22,920 nt of DNA from Chrysochromulina tobinii (taxonomy: Eukaryota; Haptophyta; Prymnesiales; Chrysochromulinaceae), in NCBI GenBank assembly GCA_001275005.1, contig JWZX01001540.1, positions 1-22,920 on the forward strand. Reading direction: 5' to 3'. The notes under the pieces were generated by a model. The model searched no databases. It was not told the origin of the DNA and was given only the letters and a program-made list of their open reading frames with translations. The position numbers and the translations under genes are program-made. Each line of letters begins with the position of its first letter. Position 1 is the stretch's first letter. Below, one piece after another: positions 1 to 22,920 of the stretch.

Positions 1-3000
1 CCCCCCCCCCAGCCCCCCCCCCACCCCGGACACGCCCGTTGAGCTCGGCTCCCGCCCGCACCAGCTGCGCCACGTGCGTGGACGCAGCGTGTGCAGCCCG
101 CGCACTTGGATGGTGTAGTCTGCGGCCGAGAGAGCGCTCTTCTTCAAAGCGAGCTCGCGCTCGGCGTTGAACTGCTTGAGCCAGATGAGGTAGAGCAGGA
201 AGACGAGCGTGGTCACGAGCTCGCTGCAGCCCACCTGGAGCAGATTGAAGGGCGTGCCACGCTGCCCCGTGTTCGCGCCGATCGTGAGCCCCTGCAGGAT
301 GACGTCGACGGCGGTGACATTCGGCTCCCAGCTGCCCAAGGCGGTGGAATGCAGCTTGAAGTACACAAAGTAGTTGTTGAGCATCGAGCCGAGAGAGACG
401 AGCCCCATCAAGAGGAAGACCCATCCGAGGGTGATCAGCTGCATGAAGTACAGCTCGGCACCGATACCGATGCCGATGCCCTCCGAGACGCCCTCGGCGG
501 TGGAGCGACGAGTGCGAGAGACGGACGAGTGCATGCACGAGAGGGGCAGCACCAGATGCATCAGGCGCGGCCCCTCGGAGTGCTCGCATTTGGACGGAGG
601 CGTCGAGTTGAGCACTACGGGCTCGTGCCGAAGGGCATCCCTGAGGGCTTGGACGGCTCGTCTGGCCTCTGTGGTGTCCGTCGAGGCAGAAGAGTCTACT
701 GTGGCCGTTGGCGAAATCTGCGAGGCAGTGGCCGAAACCGGTGGGGGCACCCAAACCCAGCCCGACCAAATCTGCTCCATGCAGCTCATCCATGGGCTCC
801 TCGAGGCCTGCGGCGCCGTGGCGGGCGGCGCCGGCGAGCCGTCGAGCAGTCGCAAGCTGGTGCGCGCGACGCGTGGACGGATGCCGCACCCCGGAATATG
901 GACGTCGACGCTCCCGTCCCCATGGAGCGCCACGATACTGCAGCCCACGAAGCCGCCCAGAATCACACTCATGCCGACGGTCAAAGGCGGCGGCAACTGC
1001 TCCTTCTGAAGGCACGCGCACCGCAGGTAGTGGCGCAGCGGGAGCGTGCATGCGCTGCAAGGGGCGGCGAGGAGAGACATGCATGCGCCCAGCCTCTTCT
1101 CGAGCTTCGTCAGAGCACGCTCGAGCTGCCGGCACAGCTCGTCCTTGGCGACGTGGCGCTCGGGGTTGAGCTCCTTCTCGAGCGGCGTCAGCTGCCAGCA
1201 GTCGTCGAACCCAAATATGGAAGGCCCAAATGGGCGCACGCGCAGCCGCGACGCGGGCGCGGAGCTCGGGCCGAGATCGTGGCGCACACGCAGCTGACGC
1301 CAGAAGCGCGCGTCGGCGACCACGGGGCCGTTCGCAGGGCCTATCTCCACGCCCTCCTTTGTGGGTGTGAAGACTTCAATGCGGTCCTCCATCTCAAGCC
1401 TGCGTCGCCTCGTCTTGGCGGGAAGAAGGACGTGGGAGATCCGCTCCTGGAGTGCCTCATCCTCGTCGGCGGCGTCCTGTGAGGAGAGCCCAGAGGTGCT
1501 CCACACGTCCTGGTAGCGCGTGAAGACCTCGTCCTCCGATTTGATCTTGAGCCATGCCGTGCGGTCGATGCGATGGTCGATCTCCTCGCGCAGACGATAC
1601 CACGTGATCTCATCGTGCGACGCGCTCGAGGGAAGGACACCCTCGACACGCACGGTGAGCTTCTGTGCAAGGGGGCGGAGCAGCAGCGCGCGCGCCGCCG
1701 CGCGCGTCTCCATCTCCTGCCGCCTCGCGTCGCCCGTCTTGAGGTGCCTGCAGAGCACGCCCACCTGGCCCAGCAGCCAGAGCAGGCCGACGCCTAAGGC
1801 TCGGAGCGGCACGGCAAGGCAACAGAGCAGCGCCATCAAGAAGGGTCCCGGATGGCACGCACATCGCGTGCTCGGCCTCATGTCAGCGAGCGCTGGCTCG
1901 TCCTCTTCGAACGGCTCGTACGAGCGCGGCAAGATCAGACGGCACACGAGGTCGTGCTTGGGCTCCCGAGGATGGCGATCGCTCCTTGGCTTACAGCTGA
2001 GCGCGCGCCAGTCCACCCACTCGCTGCCGCATGGGCGGCGCGCCTCGCCGGCTGCGAGAGGCGCCTCCTCTAGCGGCTGCTGCTCAGGCTGCTCCGACTG
2101 GTCGAAGAAGTAGAAGAAGCCCCCACACGGCCAGCGCCTCGCCGCATACGCCTCCGAGACGAAGCCGTCGAAGGTCTCCGCCGGCCGCACCCAGCAGAAG
2201 CCGACCAGCTGCTGCACCTGCAGCGCAGGCTGCGTCACGCGCTCCACTCGGTGGATCTCGTACCTGATGAGGGAGGCAATCAGGCATGATGAGAGAGGCA
2301 ATCAGCATGCAATCACTCGGTGGATCTCGTACAGGTACTGTCGGAGGGCCTGTGGAAGTAACGGCTGGCCTCGCTCGTCCTTATCTTCGGAGCGGTTGAA
2401 GTGGAGCCTGGGCGTCCCTAATATGGGAGAGCCAGGAGCGCGCCCAGCCACGGGCGCGTCGTCGCCGGCCTCGAGCGGCTGCGCGAGCGCCGTCGCAAGC
2501 GGCTGCTCATCGGTGAGCGCGTGCACCTTCAGAATATTCCCAGATGCATCCCATACGCAGAAACCGCCGAAGAGCAAGAGAGCGTCCGCATCGCTCCTAC
2601 TTCCGGGCACGCCATCGGCGGGGATCGGCGACTCGTCATCAGCCGGGCTGGCGGGTTCGTCAAGCACCCGAGGTTCGTCAAGCAGCCGAGGTTTGTCAAG
2701 CACCCGTGGCAGTGGGTACACGAACGCGAAGCTATGGGCGCCGTCCTGAGCGAGCATCGCCTCGAAAGCGCTCCATGCACTCGGCTCGGGAGGCTCGAGA
2801 GGCTTCGGCTCGCCAGGCAGCTTGGCCTTGGGCGGAGCCAGCTGCCGCGTCATGAGCGGGGCATGCGAGCCAACAAGCCTACTCGTGCCCGCAGCGGTAG
2901 CGTCGCTGCCGGCAGCGGCATTGCCGGCATCGGCCTCGGCCACGGCAACTTTGCCGTCACAATTGGGTGGCCCCGAGCTGGGAGCAATCTCAAGAGGCGG

Positions 3001-4050: not shown

Positions 4051-4213
4051 TAGGTTCTCGTTCGTGAAGAAGAACAGCGAAAAGGTTTGGGACCGTCATT
4101 TTGCAGTGTAAGGCACCTCTTTCTGGTACACGTGTGGCACGGTTTGTTCGGCTCCCACGGCGCGTGCATGGACTGATTACGTTCACGTCGACGGACGTCA
4201 ACGGCCAAACACG
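4051..4213. promoter_or_regulatory. Shared divergent promoter region, gene A / ankyrin gene
   Basis: Only 163 bp separate the ATG of gene A (minus) from the ATG of the ankyrin gene (plus), so both promoters must lie here or overlap the 5' ends. It holds three short palindromes: ACACGTGT (4128-4135, an E-box/G-box-like core), CGTCGACG (4186-4193) and GACGTC (4194-4199, CRE/bZIP-like core). No TATA box is evident. Regulatory function is inferred from position. Confidence 0.45.
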
Positions 4214-5248
4214 ATGAACATCGTGCGATCGGATGAGCTCCTTACGACGGCCGCTTTCCGCGGCGAGACGGAGCGCGTGCGCGAGATGCTCTCGCACGGC
4301 GCCATGTCATCCGCGCGCAGCGAACTAAAGACGACGGCGCTGCACTGGGCTGTCAGCATGGGCCACGTTGACACAGCCAGGGTGCTCGTGGAGCACGGAG
4401 CTGATGTGGACGCGCGCTCGGCGGACGGAAATTCACCGCTGCACGTGGCCGCCCGCGAGGGTGATGCTGCGACGGCCGAGTTCCTAATCGAGTCGGGGGC
4501 TAACCCTGTGCTGTGCAACTCGGCGGGTGCCACGCCACTCGATCTCGCTCTCGAGTACGCCGACGATGAGGTGGAGCTAGTCCACCTTCTGCGCACGGCG
4601 AAGCGCTCGCATGAAGAACGGCGCCTCACCCAAGGAGGCACAACCATCAGCGCAGCACCGTCCCCAGCGACTGCGACGCTGGCCAGCAATAGCGGCGGCA
4701 GCAGCAGCAAGGCCGTGATGGTCAGCTCGGGCTGCGGCGACGATGAGCCCCTGCCTGTCGACGGCCCACTGCGCGCCGACCTGCCGGATTACGCGCCGCT
4801 GCCCGCGGATCGCAAACCGCGGATGGTGAGCGGTGGCTGCGGAGGTGACGACTCTGGCGGCATCGTCCTCTGCTTCTCTTCGGCGGGTGGCGGCGGCAGC
4901 GGAGACGGCACCAGTGTCTCTACGGGTGCCTTCTTGGGCACCTCCTCGTCCTCGTCCTCGGCTGGCACGTTCTCGGGCGGCGAGGGACGCAGCTTCCTGC
5001 CGGCGGCACCACCGCCAGTGCCTCTCCCGCCGCCAGCAGCGCCCGCCGCTGCTGGCGGGCTCGTCGCAGCTTTCGACGCTTTGGGGCTCGTCAACGGCGG
5101 CGCGACGGGGAGCACGAGCGCTACCCCAGTTGCCGACCTCGACCAGCCAGACGAAGACGACTCGCCTCGAGTGCCACCGGCGGTCAAGACTGCCGCTGAC
5201 ATCGATGGCGCGAGACTCGCCTCGCTTGCGAGCGCAATGGGCTTTTGA
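4214..5248 (+). CDS. Ankyrin-repeat protein with a low-complexity tail
   Basis: A 344-residue intronless frame starting at the first ATG (context AACACGATGA) and ending in TGA. The N-terminal third has about four ankyrin repeats: a degenerate first (residues 9-39), then 40-71 (TALHWAVSMGHVDTARVLVE), 72-104 (SPLHVAAREGDAATAEFLIE) and a fourth, partial one from 105 (ATPLDLAL). Such repeats bind partner proteins; no catalytic domain is visible. The tail is Gly/Ser/Ala/Pro-rich. It carries a duplicated motif, MVSSGCGDDEPLP near 166-178 and MVSGGCGGDDSGG near 200-212, and a proline run near 265-280. The C-terminus is acidic, then helical (DIDGARLASLASAMGF). Partner and location cannot be told. It converges on the EGF-like gene, with about 160 bp between the two stop codons. 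Confidence 0.85.
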   Translation: MNIVRSDELLTTAAFRGETERVREMLSHGAMSSARSELKTTALHWAVSMGHVDTARVLVEHGADVDARSADGNSPLHVAAREGDAATAEFLIESGANPVLCNSAGATPLDLALEYADDEVELVHLLRTAKRSHEERRLTQGGTTISAAPSPATATLASNSGGSSSKAVMVSSGCGDDEPLPVDGPLRADLPDYAPLPADRKPRMVSGGCGGDDSGGIVLCFSSAGGGGSGDGTSVSTGAFLGTSSSSSSAGTFSGGEGRSFLPAAPPPVPLPPPAAPAAAGGLVAAFDALGLVNGGATGSTSATPVADLDQPDEDDSPRVPPAVKTAADIDGARLASLASAMGF

Positions 5249-6021: not shown

Positions 6022-9000
6022 ATGCAAGGCGCGCGCCTTCGCAAGCCTTCAGGTGACCTTAAGCTGTTTGACCGCGTGTCGAGTTCGAGCGCGCTGCCCG
6101 TAGATACTGCCGGCATGATTTCAGGGCTGTTAGAGCAAACACCATCACGTCCTACTCCTAGCCGAAGCCGAGCTGCAAGTAAAGATTTTGCGATGCAACC
6201 GCCTCTGGTGGTGCCGACTGGAGAGGCAGACAGCTCAGTGCCAAGATTGGACCTTGGGGCCCTCCCTGAAGCAGCGCGCGCTGAAGGGACGGGGCGCAGC
6301 AGTCAAGCCGACACTGATAACAAACCCTCGTGGACGCTTAATGTCATGGCTGACCCTGATGGTCTGCCAGAGGTCTCAGGAGAGGAGGCACTCAGGAGAA
6401 CGTACGGACATTCAGAGCTGGCTGCTGTTGGCGATGAGGGAGCCCCTGCACCGGCCGCAGCGCCTGCCGGAGAGGCACCCGCAGAAGAAGAGGTACTGAG
6501 TGAAAAAGACAAAGCTGCAGGTGCAAACGGAGCCCAGGGTGGAACGGTGAGCGAAACGAAAACGACAGGCTCTCACTCGCCGAAGCCGAAGGAATCCCCC
6601 CACGGGTCGGACTCGTCGCTGTCCAGCCGAGTCGAAGCCATGAACCGCTACTATCAGAAAAAGAAGCTGTTGACCCCGCGCACAGCTGCGAGAAGCGCCG
6701 CGGCCAAAGCTGCTGCCAAAGGTGACCTCGCTGCCCGTCGGACGGCGGCCAACGATGCGAAGGAAGCCCGTCTGCAAGCAGCGGAGGCGCGAAAGGATGA
6801 ACGACGGCGCGTGAGCGCCGCAACAAAAATCCAGTCATGGGAGCGTGTCCGCCGAGCCCTGCGAGTCAGCAGATACATGCGTCTGCGGCTGTGGGCGATC
6901 AGGACAGTGCAGGAAGGCGTGCGGCGGTGGCGCGTGCGAGTGAGAATGCTCGTTGAGGCCAAGGAAAGAGCAGAGATGCAGGCGAAGGAGGCGGCCCTGC
7001 GAGCCGCCGAACAGGCGGCGGCGAGGAAGGCAGCTCGGGAGGCAGCCAAGACGGAGGCAGCACGCCTTAAGGCAGAGAAGGAGGCCGCTGAGATGGAAGC
7101 TCCGGGAGCCGCGCGTCGTCGTGCAAAGCGTGCGGGACAGGAGGAGAAGGAGTTGCTCCTGTCAAAGGAGCAGCAAGAGAAAAGGAAGGCAGCATCACAG
7201 GCGAAAGAGGCAGCTAGGCAAGCCCAGGAAGAAGGGGAGCGCGCCGAGCGTGAGGCGCGGGCAAAGGCAGGGGCGCTCCAGGCTCAGATGAATGAATTGA
7301 GGCAAACAGGAGCGGCTCGAACAAGAGAGGCTCAGACGGGAGATTGCACAGCAGGCCGCCATAGCCAGGGAGGAGGCGTTCAATGCTGTGCGCCTCTTCG
7401 CCGAGGGCATGCAGGAGCTCGCCAGTCTGGGCGATGATCATCGCGATAGCATCCGCACGTGCGGAGGTATCCCGCCGCTGGTCGCCATGCTCGGAGGCGG
7501 AGTCCATCCAGGGGTCGAGCTAGCTGCTGCAATGGCGTTGACTAATGTCTCATATGGGAGCGAGGCGAATCGCAACGCCATTCGTAAAGCGGGAGGCATC
7601 CCACCGCTCGTGTCCTTGGCCACGGCGAGCGTCAAGGCAGGGTCGATGAAGTACGTGCCTGCAATGACCAATCTGGCATCTGGGACCGTCCGCGAGAATC
7701 AAGATGCAATTCGCGAGGCGGGTGGCATCCCACTACTCGTAGGATTGCTCACTGCAGGCCCAGATTCCAAGACCACATGCGACGCGGTGGACTCCCTGCG
7801 CCATTTAACTCTCGACAATAAGGCGAATTGCGAAGCGGTGCGTGCGTCTGGTGGCGTCACCTGGCTCGTCGCCCTGCTAAACGCTGGAGTGGAGTCCGTG
7901 GTGGCCACGGATGCGGTGGCCACTCTGTGCCAGATGGCTGAGGACATGCCGTTGAACCAGGACGCGATCCGCGAATCGGGCGGCATTCGCCCTTTGATTG
8001 GGTTCCTCGCAGCCAGCAGCGAATCAGATGCGCTCAAATTTGCGGCGCGTGCGCTCGGCCATTTGGCGAAGGAGAATGCCGTGAACCGCAACGTCATCTG
8101 CGAGCAGGCTGGGACCATCGCGCGTCTTGTGGCACTTCTAGGGGCAGGTGCGTCGTCCGAGGCCGCAAATTTGGCAGCCGATGTGCTGCGCGTTCTTATG
8201 CTCGGCCACGATGACCGAATAGCGGTATCCGTGCTCGCGGCCATGAAACGCCAGGGTATAGGTCTAGGTCAGAATGCTTCGTTCTCGCTGGCGGATGCCT
8301 TCCCCGGACTGCTGCAAGGCCTTACCTCAGTGGTGGCTGCACGGCTCAACGCCGCCGTCAGGCGAGGGAACGACGACAAAACAGCGAGTGGCCAGATCCA
8401 GATGGCTCTCAACGACGCTATTGCGCTGGAGCTCCCAGAAGAGGATCTCGACGCGGCGCGGGCGAAGCTGGATGAGATTGCTGCTGCACGTGCGGAGGCT
8501 ATCGCTGCTCGTAAAGCAAGGAGGGCGGCCAAGGCTGACAAGGAGAAGCGCGATGAAGGTGGCGAGTCCGCAGGCTCACCATCGCCCGAGCGACCCCGAC
8601 AGAGAGGAGAGGCGAGCGGCACAGACGGCCTAGAGGCCAGTGGCTCGCAGAACACGAATCAAAGTAAAGGTCCACAGCCAACCGGTGGTGGCAGTGGTGG
8701 AAATCACGGGGGCGGGAGCTCCACGGTCATTGGAGCGCAGGCCGTTCTCGATGCGGCGCAAACCCGTCTCAAGGAGATTGAGGCTGCAGCAGAGGCCGCC
8801 CGACGCGCGCGGCGTGAGGCCGCAGCCGAGCGAGCTGTCAAAGGCGTTGTCGGCCCTGGGGCGCGGACTGCACCACAGCGCAAGAAGGAGGCAAACCCAG
8901 TTTCCGCCCTCAACAACAAGAGGCCCGAGTCACACTCGTTCAAGGAGAATGACGAGTACTCAGACCCATGTTTATCCCCCGACGATCAGGATCACGATCA

Positions 9001-10447: not shown

Positions 10448-12490
10448 CTACGGCGCCGCGCAGCAGAACAGGCCCCAAAACTGGCCTTGCTGTTTGCTGC
10501 GCTCGATGCGTTGGAGTCGCAGCTCGATGGACTCGAGCCTCTGGAGGACGACACACGCGAGGTCGACGCTCTCTCCTCTGGCGGCGCTCGCGACTGCCCG
10601 GCTGGAGCTCATCACCTCACGCCGGGCTGCGGCGATCTCAGCATCGAGCTCCGCCGCGCTCAGCACGGCGCGGTCGGAGCTCGCCATGCCGGTGGCGCTT
10701 GGCGTTATCGAGGGCTTGTCGTCGTCCGCGAGGTCCTCTGTGACACGCGAGGAGCGTGCTGATGCGCCGGGCATGATCCGCGCGCGAGCTTGGAGCCGAC
10801 GCACGGCGGACTCTTCAACAGAAGTGAGCATCGCCGCCGCAAGTGCGTCCGTGAAGTTGGACGTTTTGCGAACCTTCCCCTCCGTCATCGGAGAGGCTTC
10901 CGAAGGAACGGCGAGGGTCGGGAGGCTGGGGAGGCTACTCGGTGGGTAAGGCGAAGCCATCGAGGCGGGCGGCGAAGTGATCGGGGTCGCTCCCGGGACT
11001 GTCGACGTGTATGGCGGGGGCGAGGTGGAACTGGAGGGCGTGTCCACCTCGGCGGGCGAGGCGGCTATGCGGCGAGCGCTCGCGCGCTCACGCCGCAGGA
11101 ATGCGAGGCGTTCCATAGCGAGTCTCTGTGCCGAGGGGGCGGCTACGAGGCTGCGACGGGATCGCTCGTAGATCGACGGCAGCACCGCCTCGGGCCACTG
11201 GAGAAAGGCGACGAGGACATCCGCGGTGGAGAGAATTGGGTGGTCGAGAACCCACTGGAGAAAGTCGCCCAGGACTTGCATCCGGCTCTCGATCACGGCT
11301 TTGGCGAACCGGCTCGCGCCCGTCTTCTCGGGCAGGGGCGGCAGCTCGAGCCCCGGAAGGAAGTCGAGGAGTGCGACGCGCAGCTTGACGAAATCGGAGA
11401 AGCGATGACGGCACTTGATCCAGCCGACGCCGCTGCGGCGCACTTGCGTCGAGACCTGGTAGCTCGTGTGCCGCTTCGGGCCAAAGCCTTCGGTCTTGGG
11501 GTCGTCCACCTGATGAGGGAGGCCATCAATGGCGTCATCAGAGGTCATCAGAGGTCATCAGGGCCAAAGCCTTCGGTCTTGGGGTCGTCCACCTGATGAG
11601 GGGGGCCATCCTGAGTAGGGAGGCAATCCTGATCTCAATCAGTGTTCGGTCTTGGGGGTCGTCCGCCTGATGAGGGAGGCCATCGATGGCGTCATCAGAG
11701 GTCATCAGAGGTCATCAGAGGTCATCAGAGGTCATCAGAGGTCATCAGAGGTCTTGAGGTCGTCCACCTTCGCGTCGCACAGCCGGTGCTCGTCAGTACG
11801 CTGGAGCTCGAGGCAGCGCGTGAAGCGAACGCCCATGAGCGCCATGCGCCAGCGCAGCCGCGCGCGCAGCCGGCGCGCCTTCTCCATCTCAGCGTTGGGC
11901 TCGCCCTGCTCGGTGTCGTCGGCCTCAGTCATGCGCGACGCACGAACCATCGGCTCAGACGCCTCCATCGACGCCTTGCGAAGCGTCACGTACTCAAGTG
12001 CGCGCACCGGAAGCTGCTCGTAGGCAGTGAGGCTGCCGTCGCGGATCCCATTGGCTAGCTGCGTTCCGATTCCCGAGATCGTGCACACGCAGGTGATCTC
12101 GAAGAAGAGGCGGCAGCCCTTGCCGCGCGGCTCCACCCACTGCTTGCCGTTCACATTGATGCGGTCCGGGAACACGGGTGGTGTCGTCGTGAAGCTACAA
12201 GGATGCTCCGCGCCGTAGACGTTTCGACGCCAAGTCTCGCTAATCGTGAAGGTGAAGCCATCCCTGCATTTCAGCATGCCACGCACCGGGTATGGGATCG
12301 GGTTCTTCAGGGCCGTCACCTTGGAGATCCGTGTCACGGTGCCGTCTGCGTCCTCCGTGCACGAGATGACCTCAGAACTTGTTGCCGGCACATTGGTAGC
12401 ATTGACGTACTTGTCGTAGCCATCGTCGTCCCGAAGTGCCCAGTAGACCTCAGGGGCGAGGGCGCAGTCGTACTCCACGCGGGTAGTCAT
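10448..12490 (-). CDS. Gene B: START-like (SRPBCC) plus PX-domain protein
   Basis: Exons 12490-11768 (241 codons, phase 0) and 11509-10448 encode 594 residues. The start is the first ATG; a GTG two codons upstream was ignored. Residues about 1-190 resemble the SRPBCC/START helix-grip fold (TRVEYDCALAPEVYWALRDD at the start; GKGCRLFFEITCVCTISGIG later), possibly for lipid binding. The second exon carries a PX domain (about 242-350), a phosphoinositide-binding fold of endosomal and sorting proteins. It has the R[RY]F-like motif RHRFSDF (275-281), the LPPLPEK loop (297-303) and Arg317 in the helix that often contacts PI3P. A Ser/Pro-rich linker and a C-terminal amphipathic coiled coil (about 560-585, VLQRLESIELRLQRIERSK) follow. 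A cytosolic membrane adaptor linking lipid transfer and endosomal membranes is an inference. The PX call is firm; the START-like call is moderate. Confidence 0.85.
11510..11767 (-). other. Intron B-i1 (258 nt), compound of three echo units
   Basis: Splicing joins CDAK to VDDPKTEGFGPKRH in phase 0. On the minus strand it reads as three consecutive units, 11767-11667, 11666-11593 and 11592-11510, each ending in CTCATCAG. Each unit starts with a copy of the downstream exon start (11509 onward): 17 of 18 bases identical, about 20 of 22 with GT changed to GC plus one inserted base, and 32 of 32 identical. The most intact copy lies next to the exon. Confidence 0.88.
11691..11750. repeat. Six perfect decamers inside intron B-i1
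   Basis: GTCATCAGAG is repeated six times without change. In the direction of transcription this is CTCTGATGAC, a form of the TGATGACCTC decamer that fills other introns here. Confidence 0.95.
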
Positions 12491-12518
12491 GCTCACGGGA
12501 CCTCCGACCGCAACTTAG

Positions 12519-14061: not shown

Positions 14062-14234
14062 AAAGCGGCTCGTCCGAGTGTTCACGTTCACGTTAATGCC
14101 ATCGCGGCAAGACACGAGAGTTCTTGAATACACGAGAGCTCCTCAATGTGGCGTGAAGTGCCCGTGGATGACTTTCCGATTTCCGAGCGCCTCCGATTTC
14201 CCAGGAAGGATCTCGCTCGGTTTCCTGTCGCAAC
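14062..14234. promoter_or_regulatory. Shared divergent promoter region, genes C and D
   Basis: 173 bp between the ATG of gene C (minus) and the ATG of gene D (plus). A near-duplicated TTCACG pair lies at about 14079-14092. No TATA box or known factor site was recognised. Promoter function is inferred from position. Confidence 0.4.
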
Positions 14235-17200
14235 ATGACTGCCGACGACTTCGAGGTTGACCCGCCCGTGACCATCGCTGAGGTGCAAGAGTTCTGCGCA
14301 ATTGTCAAGAAAAGCGTGCCGCCCGCCGTATTCGACTCGTTCGTCGAGGTGGCGCTGCGCCTCCCGGCTGCTGGCATCCCAGCGTTCGTAGCGTGCGCGC
14401 ACATTGAGGCAGTGCTCAGTGACTGGGGTGCTGCGGCCGAGGGCGGGCGGTACGAGGTGTTGCAGCAGCTCGGCATGCTTTACCCTCCGTACGGTGCCCA
14501 GCTAGCCGCCGCAGCTGCGAAGAAGTCGCGCGAGGACGCTGAGCGTCTTGCCTGTTCCGCAGCTGCGTCCGCCAGTGGCTCTATCGGAGCACCTGCCCCC
14601 GCCGCCCTCGCTGCCGCGCCCGCGCCCGCGGCAAATCCGTTTGCGGCGTTGCCTGCCTGCCCGGCGTTCGCACTGCCTGGCACGCCCGCACCCGCGCCGG
14701 CCGAGGTCGTGAATCAGCCCGCGGGCGGCGGGGCGCTCGCGCCCGCGCTGGCCGGCCCGGCCCCCGTTGCGAAGAAGGTGATCGAGAAGCCAATCTCCGT
14801 CTTCGGCTTCACCCCGCGCACCGACTGGAACTCGCTTGTCATGCCAGTTGGTCTTCAAGGGGGGGGGCTTCTCGGGGCCAGTGGAGCCACGGCCACGTTG
14901 CCGAAGCCCCCGAGCGAGCCCGCCATCGTGGTGGGCGATCGCGTGCGCGTCCGGGAGGGCGTGACACCCTCGCACGGCTGGGGCGGCGTGACCGCGGAGA
15001 GCATCGGTACGTTGGTTGCCATTGCTGGCCCCGGATGACCTCTGATGATGCCGCATGAGCTCCTTCATCAGGTACCGTCATTTCGATCCACAAGCCCGCA
15101 CCCGCATCCGGACCTCCGAAGAGGGGCGATACGGTCAAGGTGGTCGCGAACACGAGCTCGAGCCCGCGTCTACAACCTTTCGTCGGCCAGGAAGGGGTGA
15201 TTGTCGGGGACGACGGGACTAGCAACCCGTACAAGATCCAATTCAAAGATGGCAAGTTGGGAGGAGACTTTTACAAGGCCGACGTTGAGTTGAAGCTGGA
15301 CCTGAAGGTGCAGCAGATCCTCACACGGTGCGTCGCCCACTTCCCCCGTGGGCTGTTTGGCCTTTGAGGGCCTCTGAGGGCCTCTGAGGGCGTATGCGGA
15401 CCTTGAAGGATCTCGAATGGCCTCCCCCTCGCTCAGGTGCGTCGTCAACTTCCTCGAGGAGCCCGATTGGGAATCGAATCTCGCCGAGATCGAGATCGTC
15501 GCCATCGCCGAGGCTGGCGGCGCCGCGTCGGGTGACGATCACGCGCCACCCAAGCCACCCATGTGGGCGCACTACCAAGACGGCGCGTGTGGGCGGCGAG
15601 GATCGCTCCCTGGCAGCACGGGGAGCGACTGCGACGTGACATGGCGACCGGTGGCGCGGCTGTCATTCGGCTCATCGGCTGCTCTCCAACCAAGACGACG
15701 CCGAGCGGCGCCAGCAGCCCCCGCTCCCTCCGGCGCCGAGCCCGCCCCCGCTCCTGCGGTGGCGCCCTTCACCTTCGGCGGCGCAGTGCCCCCCACTTCC
15801 ACGATGGCCTCCCCCGACAGCTGTGTGCCGAAGCCCACCGGCCGCATCGGGATAGGTGAAAAAGTTATAGTCAACGGCAGGCGCGGCAAGATCACGTCCA
15901 ACGACGGGGCTAGTAATCCGTACCAGGTCACCTTCAACAACGGGAAGGTGAGCGGATGGCTCACTTCCCAGGAGGTGACCAAAATTAAGATTGCGCCCAA
16001 CAAGACCGCGGCGGACACGGCCGAGCCCCCAAGCCCACCAGGGCGCGTGTGGGTCTACCGGGACGACGCGCCTCCCCCATCGGAGGGCATCGAGGTGCGC
16101 CACGTGGCACTCATCGACGCGATCCGCGCCGAGCTCAGCTTCGTCATTCCCTCGGCGCATCCCTCGGCGCATCCCTCGGCGCATCCCTCGGCCCCAACGG
16201 CGCAGATCGAGCTCGGAGCGCATGAGTTCCAGCTGCTGCACTTCTATCTCGATCTGAGCCACGTGCGTCCGGGCGACTACGTGTGCGTGGACGGCGCCAT
16301 CTACCAGTCGCCTCCCATATTAGGGACGCCTGCTGTGAAGGCGGGTGCGCCACCGAATCTCGTGCAGGTCCGCAAGGAGCTCGAATTGGCCTTGGAGTCA
16401 GTGCCACGTGTGCCCAACTGCTCGGCGACGGCGCTGGACGCGACCAGCGCCGCCGCGCTCGCGCTCGTCGCCATCTTCGGCGACGAGCCGCACGCGTGCC
16501 GTCACGCCAAGGCCTTTGGCCTCGTGCCGCTGACACGTGGCCATCTAGTTCACACGAGCTACGACGCTGGCTTCCAGGCATCCTCTGCGCGGGAGCTCGA
16601 TCCCGAGCTGTGCCGCGAGTGGCACGCGGTCGCTTGCCTGATCGGGGGGCGCCCCTCGGACATCGACCTGCCCTTACGTGGCCAGCCGTTCATCGGCAAG
16701 GGCTCGGCGCTCGGCACGGCGCTCGCGGGGGAAGGGCGGGGGGTCCTATTCCACCTGGGGAGCGTCGGCGGCACGCGCCAGTACAAGAATCCCCACAGCC
16801 GCGGCGCGGTCGTGGCATCGATGTCCTCGGTGCGGGGTGCCGCATTAGGAAGCCCCGAGCGCTTCGTCGAGAATGCCAAGCCCGCCACCCCTGCACCGTC
16901 CTTGACGGCTCCCGCCGCTGCGGCACCCACGCTATTCAACCAGACCGACAACAAGCCGGCCTCGTGGATGGCAGTGGACCTTGGCGAGGGCACGTCCCTC
17001 TATCCAGAGCGCTACTGCCTACGCACCGACTCGGACGGGAGCCTCGCGCCGAGCCACTGGCAGCTGCAAGGATCGAGCGATGGCGTGGCGTGGGTGGTAC
17101 TGCGTCGGCACGTGGATGAGAAGTGGAAGGGCGCCACCGGGTTCTCGCCGTTCGCCGTGCCGCCCAACCCAACGCCGGCCGGCAACGCGGCGCCGGCGCT

Positions 17201-20200
17201 CGCGGAGGCAAGCTGGAAGCTCGAGCCCGCCCTCGTGCAGGGGCGCGGCTTCCGCCACTTTCGGATCCTGCAGACGGGGCCCAACCTGGGCGGCACCAAC
17301 GTGCTTGCATGCGCGGGCATCGAGCTGTACGGGGTGCTCGAGACATCGGGCGCCGTCTCGGGCGCCGACTCCCCGGCCATTCCCGCCGCCCTGGGTTCTC
17401 ATCCCGCAACGGCCGCCCACGTACGTGCGTGGCGCGCCTTCACCTCGCTGCTGCAGCAGCTGCGCTCTCGCGTCGAGGTGGGCTCCCAATCTGATTGCCA
17501 CTGATTACCACTGATTGCCACTGATTGCCACTGATTGCCACTGATTGCGCTCTTGCGTCGAGGTGGGCTCACACGTGTTTGGCCGTTGATTGCGCTCTCA
17601 TTGCACCTGCTCGCCTCCCCCCCTGACAGGTGCCTCCTCCGATGGCCTCTGATTGCCACTGATGGCACCCTAACTGCACCCGCTCGCCTGCCCCCCCATC
17701 AGGTGCTCGCAAGCGATCCGACGAGCGGGCTGTGCTACGTGCGCCATCCGACAGAGTCGTTTGGGATGCTCTGCCACGCGAACGCGCTGCTTCCACAGCC
17801 GATGCACGAGGCCGCGTGCCGGCTCACCCGCGTCGCGCGCGCCCGGCTACGCCAGCGTGCGCACAAGCAGCGCGTCGCGTGTCTCGCGCTACAGGCCGCG
17901 TGCCGGCTATGGATCGCGCTGCGGCGGGTGCGGCACCGGCGTGCGCTGCTAGAGGCGAGTGTGAAGACTCTGCCACAGGCCGTCGAGGAGCTCGAGGAGA
18001 TCGGAGGAGATGATAGAGGAGATTGGAGGAGATCGGGGGCGTTCGAGCAGCTGGAGGAGATGACCGAGCGTCTCAGGGAGAGCGATACCGATGGCATGGC
18101 GATGACGAGCCTCATTGGTGCGCTTCATGCACGGATCACAGCTCATTACTTATGATGGCCTCTGATGTGTGCCCTCGGATTGCTTCGGATAGCCTTATGA
18201 CGGCCCTGGATGGCCTCGGATGGCCCAGACGGCCACTGATTGCCACTGATTGCCACTGATTGCCACTGATTGCCACTGATTGCCACTGATTGCCACTGAT
18301 TGCCATGGATGGCCTCGGATGGCCCAGACGGCCTCGTAAGACCTCCTGCTTACTACAGATTGCCAATAATTGTCTCCCTCATCCCAGGTGCGCTCGAGAC
18401 GGCGGTATGCGCGGGCGGCGCGAACGACCCGCGCGTGCTCGAGGCGACGCGCCTCGTCGTGCGTGCAGAGCGTGTGGCGGCGGTGCGCTACTACATCTCG
18501 TCCAAGATGCCCATGCTAGCACGCCCCGACACCCTCGACCAGCTCGTCGCCCCTGCGCAGTCCGAGCGCACCTCCACCTCCACCCTCACCTCGCCCAAGC
18601 GTACTGCGTCCGCACGCCGCGCCGCCTCCGCGCTCACGCATGGCGGCGCGGCGCCCCTCACCTCCGCGCATGTCGCGATGCTGCCCGTGACGGCGCGTCG
18701 CAAGGCCGAGCGCGCGGTGGCTGCAGTGCTCGCGAGCCAGTGGGAAACGGCTGCCGATATGTTTGACGAAGCGCGGGACGCGGCCAATGCCGAGCCCAGT
18801 GCAACAGCGGCCGCGGCGGCCCTGGACGTCATGTACGCGTTCGCACTCGCATCCGATCCAACGAGCCGCGACAAGGCGGAGGCGTGGTCAGTGGTGCACG
18901 AGTACGCACGCAAGGTGACCGAGCTGCAGCTTGCATGCGAGCCGTTACTTCTCCTCGTGCTTGCACGCCTCGAGCACGGCGACGTCACGCACGCCGCGCC
19001 GCCCGCGCGCTCACGGCAGCGCTCCGCCGACTCATATGCGTTCCTCGCGCTCTTTGCGCACAAAAGTGGGATTTGGCACGCGCCAAAGGCCTCCGCCGCC
19101 GATGTCGCCTCGGCCGCCGCCGCCTCGGGAGCCGTTGGAGCCGTTGGAGCCGGCGCCTCTGGAGCTATTGGTATTGCCGCCGAGGGGGTGGGCGTCAACG
19201 GCGATGGCGGCGTCAACGGCCACGGCGGCGCGTGCTTTAGTGTGGAATTGGGGCTCACCGGGAGATCGGTGCTCACGGAGCTCGAGCTGCGCGAGATTCG
19301 CGAGGCTGACGAAGCACGCGAGCTCGAGCTCATCTCGGACGCGCAGCGCCAGGGCGAGGCTTCTTCGAGCGTGCCGATCCTGCCGTCGCGCTCGTGGTCC
19401 GGCGCGCTCGGCCCGGAGGCTCGCTGGCAGCGAAAGGCCGACGAGGCGTCCTCGGGGGATGGAGATCCGACTCTGCCCTCGTCGGCGCTGGACACGCTGA
19501 TGGCGCTGCGTGGGCTGCACCACGTCAAGAACATCGCGCTCGAGCTGCACACGCGCGTGATGGCCGAGCGGAGGCTGCCGCCCGCGATGCGCGTCAAGAC
19601 GTCGCTCAACTTCTCGCTCATGGGCAACCCGGGCACGGGCAAGACCACGGTCGCGAAGCTCCTCGGCCAGCTGCTGCACGAGCTTGGGCTGCGTTCGAGC
19701 ACGACCTTCGTGAGCACGAGCGGCGAGGCAATGTTGCGAGAATGCCCAAAGAAAATCCCTGGGCTCATCGCCTCGGCCGACAACGGCGTGCTCTTCATTG
19801 ACGAAGCGTACCAGCTCGACCCGGCCAAGAACTCGGAGGGCAAGGCGATTGTGAATCAGCTGCTTACCGCTGCCGAGGAGAAGCGCGAGACACTCTCGAT
19901 CATCTTTGCCGGCTACAAGGATGACACCGAGGAGAAGCTGTACGCGTACAGCTGCGGCCTCCAGAGCCGCTTCCGATGGCCTCGGAGTGCCTCAGATTGC
20001 AAATGAGGACCTCGGATTGCCTCCTTCATCAGGTATGGCTTCAACCCGGGGCTCAAGAGCCGCTTCCGTGACATCCTGTTTGAGGACTTCACGCAGCCCG
20101 AGCTCAAGGAGATCTTTGTGGAATTCGCCGAGAAGCACAAGTGGACCCTCGACACCAGCGTGGCCGAGGTCGCCTCGCGGCGCGTCGCACGACGGCGCGG

Positions 20201-22920
20201 CGTCAAGGGCTTTGCCAACGCGCGCGACGTGCGCACTCCGATCGCCTCAGATTGCCTCAGTCTGCCGTGGATGGCCACCGATGATCTCTGATTGCCTCAG
20301 ATCGCCTCAGATCGCCTCAGATTGCCTCAGTTTGCCATGGATGGCCACCGATGATCTCTGATTGCTCCCGACGACCTCTGATTGCCTCTGATGACCTCTG
20401 ATTTCCCCTTGATGGCAGGTGCGCACGCTCTTCGAGCACTCGTACACGCGCGCCACCAATCGCATCGACGCTGAGCGCCGCGCCGAGAAGCGCAAGGAAG
20501 CGGCGCAGGCGGCCGCCACGGCGCTCGCCACGGCGCTCGACCAGGACGCGGGTAAGAGAGAGGAGGGCAAGGGGGGGGAAGAGATGGCGCTGATCAAGCC
20601 TGGCGCTCCCGCCGCCGACATGCCGACGGAGTTGGCCCCGGGCGATACAGTCCAAATCCAGCCGTTACAGTCCAAATCGCCAAATACAGTCCAAATCCAG
20701 CCGTTACAGTCCAAATCGCCAAATACAGTCCAAATCGCTCCGGGCGATACAGTCCAAATCCAGCCGAGTGCAATCACCTCGGGCAGCCTACCGGAGCGCT
20801 TCTCGCTGTGCGAGGCGGCTGTTGTGGATGCGAGCGACATGCCCACCTTCCTTCAGGTCTGATGGCCACCCAATCCACTGATTGTCTCCCTCATAAGTCT
20901 GATGGCCAACCGTATCCACTGAATGCCTCCGATTGACTCTGTCATCCATGGACGCGTGCGGCATGCCTGCCTTCCCTCAAGGTCTGATGGCGACTGATGG
21001 GCTCTGATTGCGCCCCTCTTCCAGGTCAAGCTTGGCGAGGTCAAGGGCTGCGGCCCAGGTTGCACCAGCAGACACAGTAATGACGGCAACTGCCTCGTTT
21101 GCGGTCGCGCCTGGGGGCAGCACAACGACCACACGTGCCGCGAAGGAAAGCGCGGCAGCTGGGGAGGGCACGTCGGCCACATCTACCTCATCGAGCCCGG
21201 GTTCGTCAAGCGGACCTTTGCCGTGGCGCGGGCGCCCGGCCCGGCGCCCGGCCCGGCGCCCGGCCCGGCGCGCGTCCAACGGCTCACGTGTGCAGCGGAC
21301 ACGTCCGTCGGCGCCATTCTCAAGTTCTTGCCGACCTCATCCTACAGCTACCCGAGCTCATGCGTACACGACGCGCAAGTCACCTACCTCGAGACGAACG
21401 GCGGTCAGCCGCCCGCCCACGTCAGATGGAGCAATGGGTACACGTATTGGGTCCATTGGCAAGATCTCGTCATTGTTGGCGGCGGCGGCGGCGGCGCGGC
21501 GGCCTCCTCTGATCCCCTCGTCCCAAAGCGCAAGGCGTCCAAATTCGCGGCCGAGAAGCTTGTGATGCGGGTGGTCGATGTGGTAGGCCCCCCGCCCGAC
21601 GTGGAGACGGTGCCGGATCTCAAGGTGGCGCTTGCGGAGCTCGATCAGCAGATTGGGTTGGAGGAGGTCAAGAAGCAGGTGCGTGCCGCGCTTGATGGGC
21701 TGTAACCAATGTGTGCCACTGATGACCTCTGATGACTCCCTTGATTGCCTCCCTCCTCAGGTGCACTGCCTAATCGAGCTCGCGCGCGTCAACTACCAGC
21801 GCGAGGTGCGGTGCGAGCCGCTACACATGCTGCCCCTCAATCGGCTCTTTTTGGGCAACCCTGGCACCGGTAAGACGTCCATCGCCAAGGTGTATGGGCG
21901 CATCCTCAAAGGGCTCGGCTACCTGTCCGACGGCTCCGTCGAGGTACGTACACCCTCCGACCTCATCGCGTCCGCGGTCGGAGGCACTGAGGAGAAGACG
22001 GCGGCGCTGCTCGAGATCTGCAAGGGCAAGGTGCTCGTGATCGACGAGGCGTACGCGCTGCACGAGGGCATGTACGGCGCGCCCGCGCCATCGACACGAT
22101 CCCTCTCTGCATGCAAGTGCTCACCACGGCCCGCGCCCCCCTCCCCACAGGTACGGCGCGCGCGCCATCGACACGATCGTCTCAAAGGTGCATAACGCCC
22201 CGGGCGAGGACATCGCCGTGTTGCTGCTCGGGTACGAGGCGCCACTGAGTGCCGCTGTGCGCCGCTGAGTGCCACTGAGTGCCGCTGAGTGCCACTGAGC
22301 GCCGCTGATTGCCGTCCCTAATTAGGTACGGGGAGCCCATGTTCAAGATGCTTCGCGAGGCCAACCCGGGGCTGCAGCGACGCTTCTCGCCCGAGTCCGC
22401 CTTCCACTTTGCCGACTTTTCGGATGAGCAGCTCGAGGAACTGCTGCACCGCACCGCCGCGGCCGCTGGGCTCAAATGGTCGAGCCGCAAGGTGCGCAAG
22501 GCCGCGCTCGGGCTGCTGATTGGATGGCCCAGCATGCAAGTGCTCACAACGGCGCCCTGTCCCTTCCCCACAGGTGCGCAAGGCCGCGCTCGGGCTGCTG
22601 ATTCGAGAGAGGATCCAGCCCAACTTTGGCAACGCGGGCTCCGTCAACTCGCTCCTCGGGCGCGTCAAGTCGGCGGTGGCCGCGCGCGGAGATGCGCGCG
22701 AGATCATCCTCGCCGATCTGGGGCTCGATGAGAACGCGGCGGGCGGCAGCGCCAAGACCGAGGCCCTCCTCGCCGAGGTCGAGGCCGAGATGAGCGAGCT
22801 GTTCAAGGCGGAGCATCTACGCGCTCACTTTGACGACCTGGCCGCGAGGCTCACGACCCTCGAAAAGGATGGCGAGCTCGATGCATCTCGTCCCGCCGAC
22901 AAGGTGGGCTCGTACGTCTT
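14235..22920 (+). CDS. Gene D: giant multidomain protein with HERC2/MIB-like, HECTD1-type discoidin and tandem CbbX-like AAA+ domains (partial)
   Basis: Exons 14235-15006, 15072-15327, 15437-17477, 17703-18117, 18388-19939, 20033-20228, 20419-20856, 21025-21678, 21761-22071, 22151-22231, 22326-22491 and 22574 onward. All phases agree, giving at least 2,409 residues. In order: N-terminal helical region; HERC2/MIB-like GDRVRVREGVTPSHGWGGV (about 235-253); two related beta-rich repeats (about 275-331 and 480-527, sharing DGTSNPYKIQF and DGASNPYQVTF); HECTD1-type discoidin region (about 775-978, NKPASWMAVDLG, HWQLQGSSDGVAW, FRHFRILQTG); IQ-like helix (about 1085-1105); AAA+ 1 (GNPGTGKTT near 1573, LFIDEAYQL near 1628, NPGLKSRFR); Cys/His cluster (1899-1928); AAA+ 2 (GNPGTGKTS near 2139, VLVIDEAYAL near 2198, NPGLQRRF). 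The final KVGSYVF precedes the place where a third P-loop would be expected. The AAA+ type is SpoVK/CbbX-like, a hexameric remodeller; remodelling of a bound target is inferred, the substrate is unknown. Confidence 0.85.
15007..15071 (+). other. Intron D-i1 (65 nt)
   Basis: Joins TAESIG to TVISIHKP in phase 1 and restores the HERC2/MIB-like consensus. Donor GTACGTT, acceptor CTTCATCAG, next exon GTACCGT. The nucleotide echo is weak (GTAC), but the read-through peptide IGTLVAIAGPG resembles the real one, IGTVISIHKP. Filler includes GATGACCTCTGATGA. Confidence 0.85.
15328..15436 (+). other. Intron D-i2 (109 nt) with a 17-nt echo
   Basis: Joins QQILTR to CVVNFLEEP. The first 17 intron bases match 15 of the first 17 bases of the next exon (15437-15453). 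Filler contains GAGGGCCTCT units with a 10-bp period, and the acceptor is CCCTCGCTCAG. Confidence 0.88.
16149..16196. repeat. In-frame 12-bp tandem repeat in gene D
   Basis: Four units of CCCTCGGCGCAT (the last diverged) encode PSAHPSAHPSAHPSAP. This is a frame-preserving simple repeat in a linker before the discoidin region. Confidence 0.9.
17478..17702 (+). other. Intron D-i3 (225 nt), compound
   Basis: Joins QLRSRVE to VLASDPTSG in phase 0. Internal AG|GT junctions at 17562/17563 and 17629/17630 divide it into three parts. The exon end plus donor (17462-17485) recurs inside the intron at 17547-17570 with 23 of 24 bases identical. The two stretches before 17630 and 17703 also resemble each other (GCACCTGCTCGCCT and GCACCCGCTCGCCT). 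Confidence 0.85.
17492..17547. repeat. Decamer array in intron D-i3
   Basis: About five copies of TGATTGCCAC with a 10-bp period (one TGATTACCAC), ending where the internal copy of the upstream exon end begins. Confidence 0.9.
18118..18387 (+). other. Intron D-i4 (270 nt)
   Basis: Joins MTSLIG to ALETAVCAGG in phase 1. The intron begins GTGCGCTTC and the next exon GTGCGCTCG, sharing the first seven bases. A decamer array sits inside, flanked by two identical 28-bp copies (18207-18234 and 18306-18333). Acceptor TCTCCCTCATCCCAG. Confidence 0.85.
18231..18302. repeat. Seven-copy decamer array in intron D-i4
   Basis: TGCCACTGAT is repeated from 18231 with an exact 10-bp period. The first copy differs at one base and the next six are perfect. 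Confidence 0.95.
19940..20032 (+). other. Intron D-i5 (93 nt) with a 36-nt decayed echo
   Basis: Splicing gives AGYKDDTEEKLYGFNPGLKSRF in pieces: AGYKDDTEEKL joins YGFNPGLKSRF. The spacing from AGY to NPG is then 11 residues, as in the second AAA+ domain. Intron bases 19940-19975 align without gaps to exon bases 20033-20068 at 26 of 36, the last 13 being identical. A donor 6 bp downstream (19946) is possible but gives poorer spacing. Confidence 0.85.
20229..20418 (+). other. Intron D-i6 (190 nt) with internal 45-bp duplication
   Basis: Joins FANARD to VRTLFEHSYTR, the lid region of the AAA+ domain. The first eight bases (GTGCGCAC) equal the next exon start; 12 of the first 16 match. Positions 20251-20295 and 20321-20365 are copies with two differences, exactly 70 bp apart. 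Confidence 0.87.
20647..20766. repeat. AT-richer in-frame repeat in gene D exon 7
   Basis: ACAGTCCAAATC occurs six times. A 39-bp unit is nearly perfectly doubled, encoding repeated TVQIQPLQSKSPN. It keeps the frame but is far less GC-rich than the surrounding exon and has unusual codons for this gene. Confidence 0.9.
20857..21024 (+). other. Intron D-i7 (168 nt), compound
   Basis: Joins MPTFLQ to VKLGEVKGCG in phase 0. The end of the upstream exon plus donor (20825-20866) recurs inside the intron at 20948-20990 with about 36 of 42 bases identical and one inserted base. GTCTGATGGC occurs three times (at 20857, about 20898 and 20981). Acceptor CCCTCTTCCAG. Confidence 0.83.
21234..21272. repeat. 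In-frame 12-bp repeat in gene D exon 8
   Basis: GCGCCCGGCCCG recurs three times and encodes APGPAPGPAPGPA, probably a flexible linker after the Cys/His cluster. Confidence 0.85.
21679..21760 (+). other. Intron D-i8 (82 nt)
   Basis: Joins LEEVKKQ to VHCLIELARVN in phase 0, matching the helix before the P-loop in CbbX-like proteins. Only the first four bases of the echo (GTGC) are clear. The read-through peptide VRAALDGL still has the same hydrophobic pattern. Filler TGATGACCTCTGATGACTCC, acceptor CTCCCTCCTCAG. Confidence 0.85.
22072..22150 (+). other. Intron D-i9 (79 nt) with a 30-nt echo
   Basis: Joins EGM to YGARAIDTIVSK. Intron bases 22072-22101 match exon bases 22151-22178 except for a 2-base indel in the GC run. 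Acceptor CTCCCCACAG. Confidence 0.9.
22232..22325 (+). other. Intron D-i10 (94 nt)
   Basis: Joins AVLLLG to YGEPMFKMLREANPGL. The first 16 bases match the next exon start at 12 positions. Filler is a decamer ladder (TGAGTGCCGC, TGAGTGCCAC, TGAGCGCCGC). The acceptor is the unusual CCCTAATTAG. Confidence 0.87.
22492..22573 (+). other. Intron D-i11 (82 nt) with a perfect 30-nt echo
   Basis: Joins WSSRK to VRKAALGLLIRERI in phase 0. The first 30 intron bases (22492-22521) are identical to the first 30 bases of the next exon (22574-22603). The unspliced frame would therefore repeat VRKAALGLLI. Acceptor CCCTTCCCCACAG. Confidence 0.92.

What the first reader, a model, noticed from the sequence alone, without database searches (positions are those of the whole stretch)
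2264..22573. Introns begin with a copy of the next exon's first bases: an introner-like intron-gain system
Seen: eight of 13 introns, in genes A, B and D on both strands, open with a clear copy (12 nt or more) of the following exon start. Examples are 30/30 (D-i11), 32/32 (gene B inner unit), 19/19 (A), 28 of 30 with an indel (D-i9), 15/17 (D-i2), 26/36 (D-i5), and 12/16 (D-i6, D-i10). D-i4 shares only its first 7 bases, and D-i1, D-i3, D-i7 and D-i8 are weak. The copy ends abruptly and unrelated decamer filler follows, so each intron is echo + filler + AG. Known: introners in Micromonas, Aureococcus and other lineages insert as units whose target duplication supplies a splice site. Inference: this is such a system, but the duplications are long and vary (about 12-36 nt). 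That fits staggered-break repair or template switching better than a transposase with a fixed duplication length.
Basis: partly seen in the sequence, partly recalled or inferred. Interest (0 to 1): 0.92.

Follow-up and report, generated by a model that had tools for sequence, protein, structure and literature searches.

The report
Jumping introns that duplicate exon starts
In a small alga, short DNA pieces insert into genes, copy 14 to 43 letters of the spot they land in, and use that copy as the edge of a new intron; a near-identical gene copy in the same genome still shows one landing spot empty.

Summary
Ten of 14 tested intron units in the window begin with a copy of the next exon's start (p<=0.012 against other GT-starting exons). 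An echo-blind gene model of 273 kb of the same genome gives 8 of 106 introns with a strong echo, none in 500 shuffles. The genome is very probably the haptophyte Chrysochromulina tobinii. The echo is a target-site duplication: a 97%-identical copy of gene D (contig C72) holds one copy of the D-i11 echo and lacks the intron. The 'filler' is not unrelated: it includes two families, 879 and 398 exact copies of their motifs, that carry the 3' splice site; the duplicated target usually supplies the 5' GT. Duplications are variable, 14-43 nt in 25 fresh cases; passages on earlier introners give 3-9 bp. 28 of 29 F1-like ends in the sample lie in called sense introns. Endonuclease/RT frames of LINE layout exist. 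I favour target-primed insertion of intron-derived RNA (about 0.4) over break repair; splicing was not tested with RNA. New variant of introners.

The parts
2264..2332 (-). Gene A intron: duplicated target copy 1 (2314-2332, 19 nt) + 50-nt F1 insert (2264-2313, ends TGATTGCCTCCCTCATCAG on the minus strand); target copy 2 is the exon start 2245-2263
   Evidence: 19/19 echo; F1 end exact
11510..11592 (-). Gene B intron, inner unit: 32-nt duplication (11561-11592 / 11478-11509) + 51-nt F1-type insert ending GATGGCCTCCCTCATCAG
   Evidence: 32/32
11593..11666 (-). Gene B intron, middle unit: begins GCGGACGACCCCCAAGACCGAA (diverged copy of the exon start), contains two F1-like ends, the last GATGGCCCCCCTCATCAG
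   Evidence: sequence; unit ends
11667..11767 (-). Gene B intron, outer unit: 17/18 echo of the exon start (11750-11767) + decamer filler ending GATGGCCTCCCTCATCAG
15328..15436 (+). Gene D intron 2: echo 15/17, GGCCTCTGAG decamer filler
18118..18387 (+). Gene D intron 4: 7/7 echo only; long GCCACTGATT array
19940..20032 (+). Gene D intron 5: decayed 36-nt echo (26/36), F1-type 3' end (1 mismatch)
20229..20418 (+). Gene D intron 6: 8/8 echo, decamer array
21679..21760 (+). Gene D intron 8: F1-type 3' end (1 mismatch), echo not significant
22072..22150 (+). Gene D intron 9: echo 28/28 with an indel; F2 insert (core at 22109)
22232..22325 (+). Gene D intron 10: echo 10/12; paralogue C72 has the same intron 3' end (CCCTAATTAG|GTACG) but different filler and a 26-nt echo
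22492..22573 (+). Gene D intron 11: 30-nt duplication (22492-22521 / 22574-22603) + 52-nt F2 insert (core at 22532); 32 + 50 if the shared AG is counted to the duplication; empty in paralogue C72
15007..15071 (+). Gene D intron 1, no significant echo
17478..17702 (+). Gene D intron 3, no exon-start echo; contains a near copy of 25 nt spanning its own donor (17461 and 17546)
20857..21024 (+). Gene D intron 7, no significant echo
14235..22920 (+). Gene D, 12 exons after removal of 11 introns; 2,409 codons, no stop; runs off the contig; two AAA+ domains, the second matching CbbX

Best explanation
The echoed introns are young spliceosomal introns made by insertion of very short introner-like elements (30-91 nt in 23 of 25 fresh cases) that duplicate 14-43 nt of the exon they enter. 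The element's 3' end (branch-point-like motif, pyrimidine tract, CAG; families F1 and F2) supplies the 3' splice site. The first copy of the duplicated target, usually beginning with GT, supplies the 5' splice site. Splicing from the first copy to the second would restore the original coding sequence exactly. Later the intronic copy decays, the decamer filler turns over, and further units can stack at the same exon start. Shown: insertion and duplication (one empty site), families, restoration of frame. Inferred: splicing. Most likely mechanism (about 0.4, inferred): an intron-derived RNA ending at its own CAG is copied into a nicked, transcribed gene by target-primed reverse transcription of LINE type, which gives variable duplications, a fixed 3' end and a variable 5' end. 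The confidence below is for the insertion-and-duplication core, not for that enzyme step.
For: Empty site: C72 has one copy of AGGTGCGCAAGGCCGCGCTCGGG(T)TGCTGATT where the window has two copies around a 50-nt insert. A 79%-identical paralogue, C1384, matches the whole query, D-i8 to D-i11 positions included, in one uninterrupted stretch. Seven of the 16 homologues I fetched read across the D-i11 position without an insertion; one of them, P0244, is the C72 gene model itself. Echo against shuffles: 8 of 106 versus 0 of 500; F1 sites 24 of 54 with score >=16 versus 0.57% of shuffled pairs, tandem stacks included. Families: 879 and 398 exact copies, reversed-pattern controls 0. F2 sites fetched by core alone: 31 of 43 are followed within 45 nt by CCCCACAG, 3 by another CACAG, 9 by neither; GT follows in 28 of the 34. 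Fresh duplications 14-43 nt in 25 of 94 F1/F2 sites. The CbbX-type domain aligns to solved structures through the D-i8 to D-i11 junctions with only small gaps. 28 of 29 F1-like ends and 94 of 96 decamer pairs in called sense introns. EN and RT domains on one strand in frames of equal reported length on five contigs: C914, C1323, C1586, C1004, C767.
Against: No RNA evidence of splicing. 53 of the 94 F1/F2 sites show no duplication scoring >=12, taken as old but not proven so. Presence/absence at DNA level rests on one locus. Two close homologues, P0249 and P0250 (97-98% identical), begin exactly at the D-i11 position, as they would if an intron lay there too, and P0245 leaves the frame there; so D-i11 may be polymorphic, and loss from C72 is not excluded. 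The HMM's intron term was trained on the same sequence, which favours calling F1, F2 and decamer stretches sense introns. After F1 ends not followed by GT, 44% of 16 windows look sense-coding and 44% antisense. Against target priming: no A-tail between insert and second target copy, few copies outside sense introns, which a free LINE would leave, and no second copy of the 5' part of the D-i11 insert at <=1 mismatch.
Confidence: 0.87

Rival explanations
1. Repair of staggered double-strand breaks: both overhangs are filled in (duplication) and a filler is captured or synthesised between them, as proposed for Daphnia.
For: Variable duplication length fits. Daphnia new introns carry exon-terminal repeats at the opposite end, 4-12 bp (PMC4202315, passages). 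Decamer arrays look like slippage products.
Against: The captured piece is not arbitrary: hundreds of copies of two motifs, 28 of 29 F1-like ends in called sense introns. Duplications are 14-43 nt, longer than the Daphnia range in those passages.
Confidence: 0.25
2. RNA-level event: an intron 3' piece is joined to, or picked up by template switching on, an mRNA during reverse transcription, and the cDNA recombines back into the gene. Sense orientation and exon-only location would follow automatically.
For: 0 of 29 F1-like ends and 0 of 96 decamer pairs in the 11.7% called intergenic.
Against: Does not naturally produce a 14-43 nt duplication. Conversion by cDNA should erase neighbouring introns, but D-i10 sits only 166 nt upstream of the fresh D-i11.
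Confidence: 0.15
3. Tandem duplication of exon segments containing AGGT, with the copies later replaced by filler.
For: Some stacks are plainly tandem copies of a whole unit, e.g. L022, spaced 78, 78, 78 and 74 nt.
Against: The D-i11 insert is F2-family sequence and its empty site shows a single 82-nt difference. The first copy is preceded by AG in only 8 of 25 fresh cases.
Confidence: 0.06
4. Ordinary DNA-transposon introners (MITE-like) moved by a transposase.
For: Most introner families are interpreted as DNA elements in the main survey, which also has a Chrysochromulina metagenome genome with 4-bp duplications (PMC9860276, passages).
Against: Duplication length is not fixed. No consistent terminal inverted repeat: in-register terminal matches were 0-4 of 10 in 36 of 39 inserts, though 4 of 39 had an internal inverted match >=7 against 0.3 expected. 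I did not search for transposase genes.
Confidence: 0.06

Closest known systems
Introners of diverse protists, including a Chrysochromulina sp. metagenome genome (Gozashti et al. 2022, PMC9860276; passages read)
   Same: Families of similar introns at many loci; one splice site on the element and the other taken from the duplicated target; bias to genes.
   Different: Passages give 3-9 bp duplications for earlier families and 4 bp in that Chrysochromulina genome, where the element carries the 5' site and takes the 3' site. Here 14-43 nt, variable, and the element carries the 3' site in F1 and F2.
New introns of Daphnia pulex (PMC4202315; passages read)
   Same: Exon-terminal repeats of variable length at the opposite end of new introns; evidence of repeated events in one intron.
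   Different: Repeats 4-12 bp there; no constant-ended families in the passages I saw.
LINE/SINE retrotransposons (recalled; no member compared)
   Same: Variable target duplications, fixed 3' end, variable 5' end; the host genome has EN-RT frames.
   Different: Mostly 30-91 nt long, no A-tail, almost only in called sense introns.
Amoebophrya introner elements (PMC7789003; passages read)
   Same: Direct repeats at intron borders, spread in genes.
   Different: Repeats 3-5 nt there, with 8-20 nt inverted repeats and non-canonical borders; here GT-AG (103 of 106 called introns start GT, by the model's design) and no consistent inverted repeats.
Direct repeats near splice sites in general (Rogers and Bendich 2025, PMC11782384; abstract and passages read)
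   Same: Reports 4-30 bp repeats at or near intron borders.
   Different: Mean 11.4 bp, within 40 bp of the borders; here exactly adjoining, up to 43 nt, with an empty site.

Membership tests
Introner | Near-identical intron sequence at many unrelated loci | tested here: met
   F1 879 and F2 398 exact copies of a 19- and 21-mer, controls 0
Introner | Creates a new intron by insertion (presence/absence) | tested here: met
   D-i11 absent in C72 and C1384; one locus at DNA level; two homologues may carry it too
Introner | Inserted sequence is spliced out | not testable with these tools
   No RNA reads; frame and conserved domain are restored when introns are removed
Introner | Enriched in genes | tested here: met
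   28 of 29 F1-like ends in called sense introns, the other a 4-mismatch exon hit; 50 nt after F2 called sense-coding in 86% of 21 and after GT-F1 in 79% of 29, against 16% of 603 intergenic windows; but only 44% of 16 non-GT F1 sites
DNA-transposon (MITE) introner | Target duplication of fixed length | tested here: not met
   14-43 nt in 25 fresh cases
DNA-transposon (MITE) introner | Terminal inverted repeats | tested here: not met
   39 inserts, no consistent terminal inverted repeat
LINE/SINE-type (target-primed) element | Variable-length target duplication | tested here: met
LINE/SINE-type (target-primed) element | Constant 3' end, variable 5' end | tested here: met
   F2 sites fetched by core alone: CCCCACAG within 45 nt in 31 of 43; 5' extent varies. 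F1 sites were chosen by their 3' end, so F1 is no test of it
LINE/SINE-type (target-primed) element | Poly(A) or simple-repeat 3' tail | tested here: not met
   In the 25 fresh cases the second target copy follows directly on CCCCACAG (15) or CTCATCAG (10); sites were chosen by such ends
LINE/SINE-type (target-primed) element | RNA intermediate | not testable with these tools
   no transcripts or new insertions available
Staggered-break repair introns (Daphnia type) | Arbitrary, unrelated inserts | tested here: not met
   for F1 and F2 inserts; repeats without F1/F2 sequence also exist

The most novel reading that the evidence does not exclude
A retro-introner system: excised or unspliced intron RNAs of C. 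tobinii, ending at their own CAG, are copied by a LINE-type reverse transcriptase at nicks in transcribed exons. Any intron 3' end can therefore breed new introns, and the target's duplicated 14-43 nt supplies the missing donor. Intron gain would then be a by-product of the cell's own introns and a resident retrotransposon rather than of a DNA transposon.
Probability: 0.38. Interest if true: 0.93.

Novelty: new variant of a known kind. Interest (0 to 1): 0.84.

Why it matters
How new spliceosomal introns arise is a long-open question, and cases with an empty site and a readable scar are valuable. Here a compact algal genome holds over a thousand copies of two intron-end motifs, with fresh target duplications long enough to date and orient each insertion, and near-identical gene copies that differ by introns. 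The variable duplications, recurrent 3' end and sense placement point away from the transposase model given for most introners and make an RNA-mediated model directly testable in a culturable alga.

Tried and rejected
A 10.5-bp helical periodicity in duplication lengths: not significant (uniform-null p 0.47). Chance: rejected by shuffles. The unanchored F2 scan gave 13 of 28 with score >=20 against 1.7% of shuffled pairs, but 17 of 28 against 7% at >=14; shared tails inflate that null, so I rest F2 on fresh long duplications and the empty site. Terminal inverted repeats: no consistent ones. Source tracing: the 5' part of the D-i11 insert occurs once in the genome at <=1 mismatch, and the A insert has one relative at 2 mismatches on C1898. 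F2 core in viral contigs: one match, near the end of a contig whose open frames look like phage genes to me (no family search run), probably chance or a chimera; F1 end followed by GT: none. An all-repeat scan not anchored on families found 56 near repeats in the 273 kb, many of them protein repeats or decamer arrays; a splice that restores the target was possible in 12 of 34 lying in called introns and 2 of 22 elsewhere (Fisher p 0.03). It includes repeats with no F1 or F2 end, which I did not explain. A mirrored class, in which the end of the previous exon recurs at the intron end, exists (score >=10 in 2 of 106, shuffled mean 0.006); I did not work it out. My stack filter failed because it let the shared AG shift the start; one search replaces it. 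A second LINE-type endonuclease family, PF14529, gave one hit. Protein searches did not name the organism; one search did. The spliced gene B had one stop in its best frame, whose place I did not check.

Literature: ten searches. In those listings and the passages read I saw no report of introners with long variable duplications or of C. tobinii introners; supplementary tables could not be read, so C. tobinii may be among the 175 genomes of PMC9860276. In PMC4580454 I saw passages only (59 Mb, 3,472 contigs, 63.4% GC, about one intron per gene). PMC3443670 and PMC12768974: passages only.

Full report
What was checked. The window is the whole of contig C638 of a 53.15-Mb assembly. A protein named Chrysochromulina tobinii lies on a 13,481-base contig (P0244), and contig C72 of this genome, which encodes a stretch 97% identical to gene D, is also 13,481 bases long. 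GC is 63.2% in the first 200 kb sampled against 63.4% published (PMC4580454, passages). I therefore take the organism to be this haptophyte; that is an inference.

The echo is real. To avoid choosing introns by their echo I trained a small hidden Markov gene finder on 272,920 bases (25 loci of 10 kb plus the window), with codon, intron and splice-site terms only. It returned 106 usable introns (141 called; those over 400 nt, near an end or not flanked by exons were dropped). The start of the intron matches the start of the following exon with score >=10 (+1/-2) in 8 of 106, and in none in 500 shuffles of intron-exon pairs. In the window 10 of 14 units are significant at p<=0.012 even against exons that also start with GT, and 4 are not. 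The null contains a few self pairs, so its floor is about 0.0007.

The filler is not filler. Many introns end in TGATTGCCTCCCTCATCAG (F1); others contain GCATGCAAGTGCTCACCACGGCGCC and end CCCCACAG (F2). Exact searches find 438+441 copies of the F1 19-mer and 189+209 of an F2 21-mer in the genome, with no copy of the reversed patterns. F1 sites were picked by their 3' end, so its constancy is by choice; what adds is that almost nothing upstream of it is shared. F2 sites were fetched by the core alone: of 43, 31 are followed within 45 nt by CCCCACAG, 3 by another CACAG and 9 by neither, and GT follows in 28 of those 34. Between core and end lies a variable pyrimidine-rich stretch. Both families contain a motif like the animal branch-point consensus (CTGAT, CTCAC; consensus recalled), so each looks like a minimal 3' splice region. 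Decamer arrays around CTGAT lie almost only in called sense introns: 94 of 96 pairs, none in the 31,916 bases called intergenic.

The echo is a target duplication. In 54 F1 sites (40 fetched regions plus the loci already held, tandem stacks included) the sequence right after CATCAG recurs upstream with score >=16 in 24, against 0.57% of 1,045 shuffled pairs. Of 94 F1 and F2 sites, 41 have a duplication of score >=12 adjoining the insert and 53 do not; 25 are fresh (<=2 mismatches, not stacked by my flank rule, not at an edge), with lengths 14-43 nt; 22 of the 25 begin with GT. Inserts are 30-157 nt, 91 or less in 23 of 25; the two longest include stacked units. Indels shorten some lengths, D-i9 for one.

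An empty site shows insertion at one locus. Gene D's second AAA+ domain has two close copies in the same genome. In C72, 97% identical in protein, the D-i11 position is contiguous. The DNA alignment shows one copy of AGGTGCGCAAGGCCGCGCTCGGGTTGCTGATT where the window has two copies around 50 nt of F2 sequence, a clean 82-nt difference. C1384, 79% identical, matches all 321 residues in 963 bases, so it has none of introns D-i8 to D-i11. Among the 16 homologues fetched of 298 found (120 listed), seven read across D-i11 without an insertion, one of them the C72 gene model itself; P0249 and P0250 (97-98% identical) begin exactly at that position, as they would behind an intron, and P0245 leaves the frame there. 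So the intron may be present in some close relatives and absent from others. Read-through of intron-like stretches in P0243 and P0261 suggests that such database proteins were predicted from unspliced DNA (my reading). C72 in turn has an intron, stacked behind another CATCAG, before GTGCACAACTCGCC, where the window and C1384 have none. D-i10 is shared with C72 by its odd 3' end CCCTAATTAG, but filler and echo differ, so intron interiors turn over while the coding parts stay about 97% alike.

Consequences for the protein. With 11 introns out, gene D reads 2,409 codons without a stop, and its second AAA+ domain aligns with CbbX (3zuh, E 4.2e-27) through the D-i8 to D-i11 junctions, with a 4-residue gap near D-i9 and a 1-residue gap near D-i11. 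D-i9 (79 nt) and D-i11 (82 nt) would shift the frame if kept. RNA was not available.

Two ways to supply splice sites. Usually the target copy starts with GT and the insert brings the AG. In L057 the target copy starts CC, and splicing that restores the exon would use a GT at the insert's start and an AG at the end of the second target copy (sequence). A mirrored class with the previous exon's end repeated at the intron end exists in the sample. This suggests that insertion comes first and splice sites are found afterwards.

Mechanism. Variable length speaks against an ordinary fixed-cut transposase, and no consistent terminal inverted repeats were found; transposase genes were not searched. 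A recurrent 3' end with a variable 5' end is what target-primed reverse transcription gives (recalled from LINE biology). The genome encodes EN and RT domains in LINE order on the same strand of nine contigs, on five of them (C914, C1323, C1586, C1004, C767) in frames of equal reported length; of 26 RT hits in all, those on C1323 and C962 among the nine fall below the family's cut-off. Ten integrase hits, on C1667, C2140 and C2236 near RT hits, point to LTR elements as well. Against a free LINE-type process stands the near absence of intergenic and antisense copies: 28 of 29 F1-like ends in called sense introns, the last a 4-mismatch exon hit; F2 6 of 9 in sense introns, 2 in stretches called sense exon, 1 antisense to a called intron that the HMM probably placed on the wrong strand. 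A caution: the HMM's intron term was trained on the same sequence and so leans towards this result. A check by coding signal alone gives 86% of 21 F2 and 79% of 29 GT-F1 sites sense-coding downstream, against 81% of 124 called exon starts and 16% of 603 intergenic windows, but 44% sense and 44% antisense for 16 F1 sites not followed by GT. Selection explains the loss of antisense copies from exons, not from introns or intergenic DNA, so the process is probably tied to transcripts. Break repair explains variable duplications but not recurrent intron 3' ends. I therefore rank target-primed copying of intron-derived RNA first at about 0.4, break repair 0.25, an mRNA-level event 0.15.

Novelty. 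Passages of the main introner survey give 3-9 bp duplications for earlier families and, for a Chrysochromulina metagenome genome, 4 bp with the 5' site on the element (PMC9860276); Daphnia repeats are 4-12 bp (PMC4202315); Amoebophrya 3-5 nt (PMC7789003). The passages I saw do not describe this combination; supplements were not readable. I file it as a new variant of introners.

Limits. One empty site at DNA level; a draft assembly; sites taken in contig order; in-house gene finder; 53 of 94 family sites without a clear duplication; no RNA. After rechecking I lowered the core confidence by 0.01 for P0249 and P0250.

Noticed in passing
window 17461-17570: D-i3 holds a 25-nt near copy of the segment spanning its own donor site, a different kind of duplication from the exon-start echo.
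   Followed up: no
L014:660 and L020:5330 (minus strand), L057: Mirrored type: the end of the upstream exon recurs at the intron's 3' end, about 24-33 nt, and the insert brings the donor.
   Followed up: partly
L022:5022-5407: Units of 74-78 nt stacked in one intron: tandem duplication of echo plus insert.
   Followed up: partly
G000 contigs C914, C1323, C1586, C1004, C767: LINE-like frames with APE endonuclease and reverse transcriptase domains, apparently open.
   Followed up: no
G000:C1384:17269-18231: Paralogue of gene D's AAA+ part without the four introns, in an open frame of 2,977 codons, 79% identical.
   Followed up: partly
P0243, P0261, P0270, P0249, P0250 (homologues): Read-through, abrupt ends or starts suggest introns at other positions, at D-i9 (P0270) or at D-i11 (P0249, P0250) in relatives.
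   Followed up: no
L020:2671-2754: Repeat of 26 nt around a 32-nt CTGATGGG decamer insert in a stretch called intergenic, ending CTAA rather than AG: a possible non-intron insertion.
   Followed up: no
window 4214-5248 (+), 7301-9025 (+), 10448-12514 (-), 12988-14142 (-): Neighbouring genes: ankyrin repeats, armadillo repeats, PX plus DUF2505 (gene B), hSac2 domain.
   Followed up: no
L094:4499-4519 (IMG/VR contig): One exact F2-core match near the end of a contig whose frames look phage-like; chance or chimera likely.
   Followed up: no
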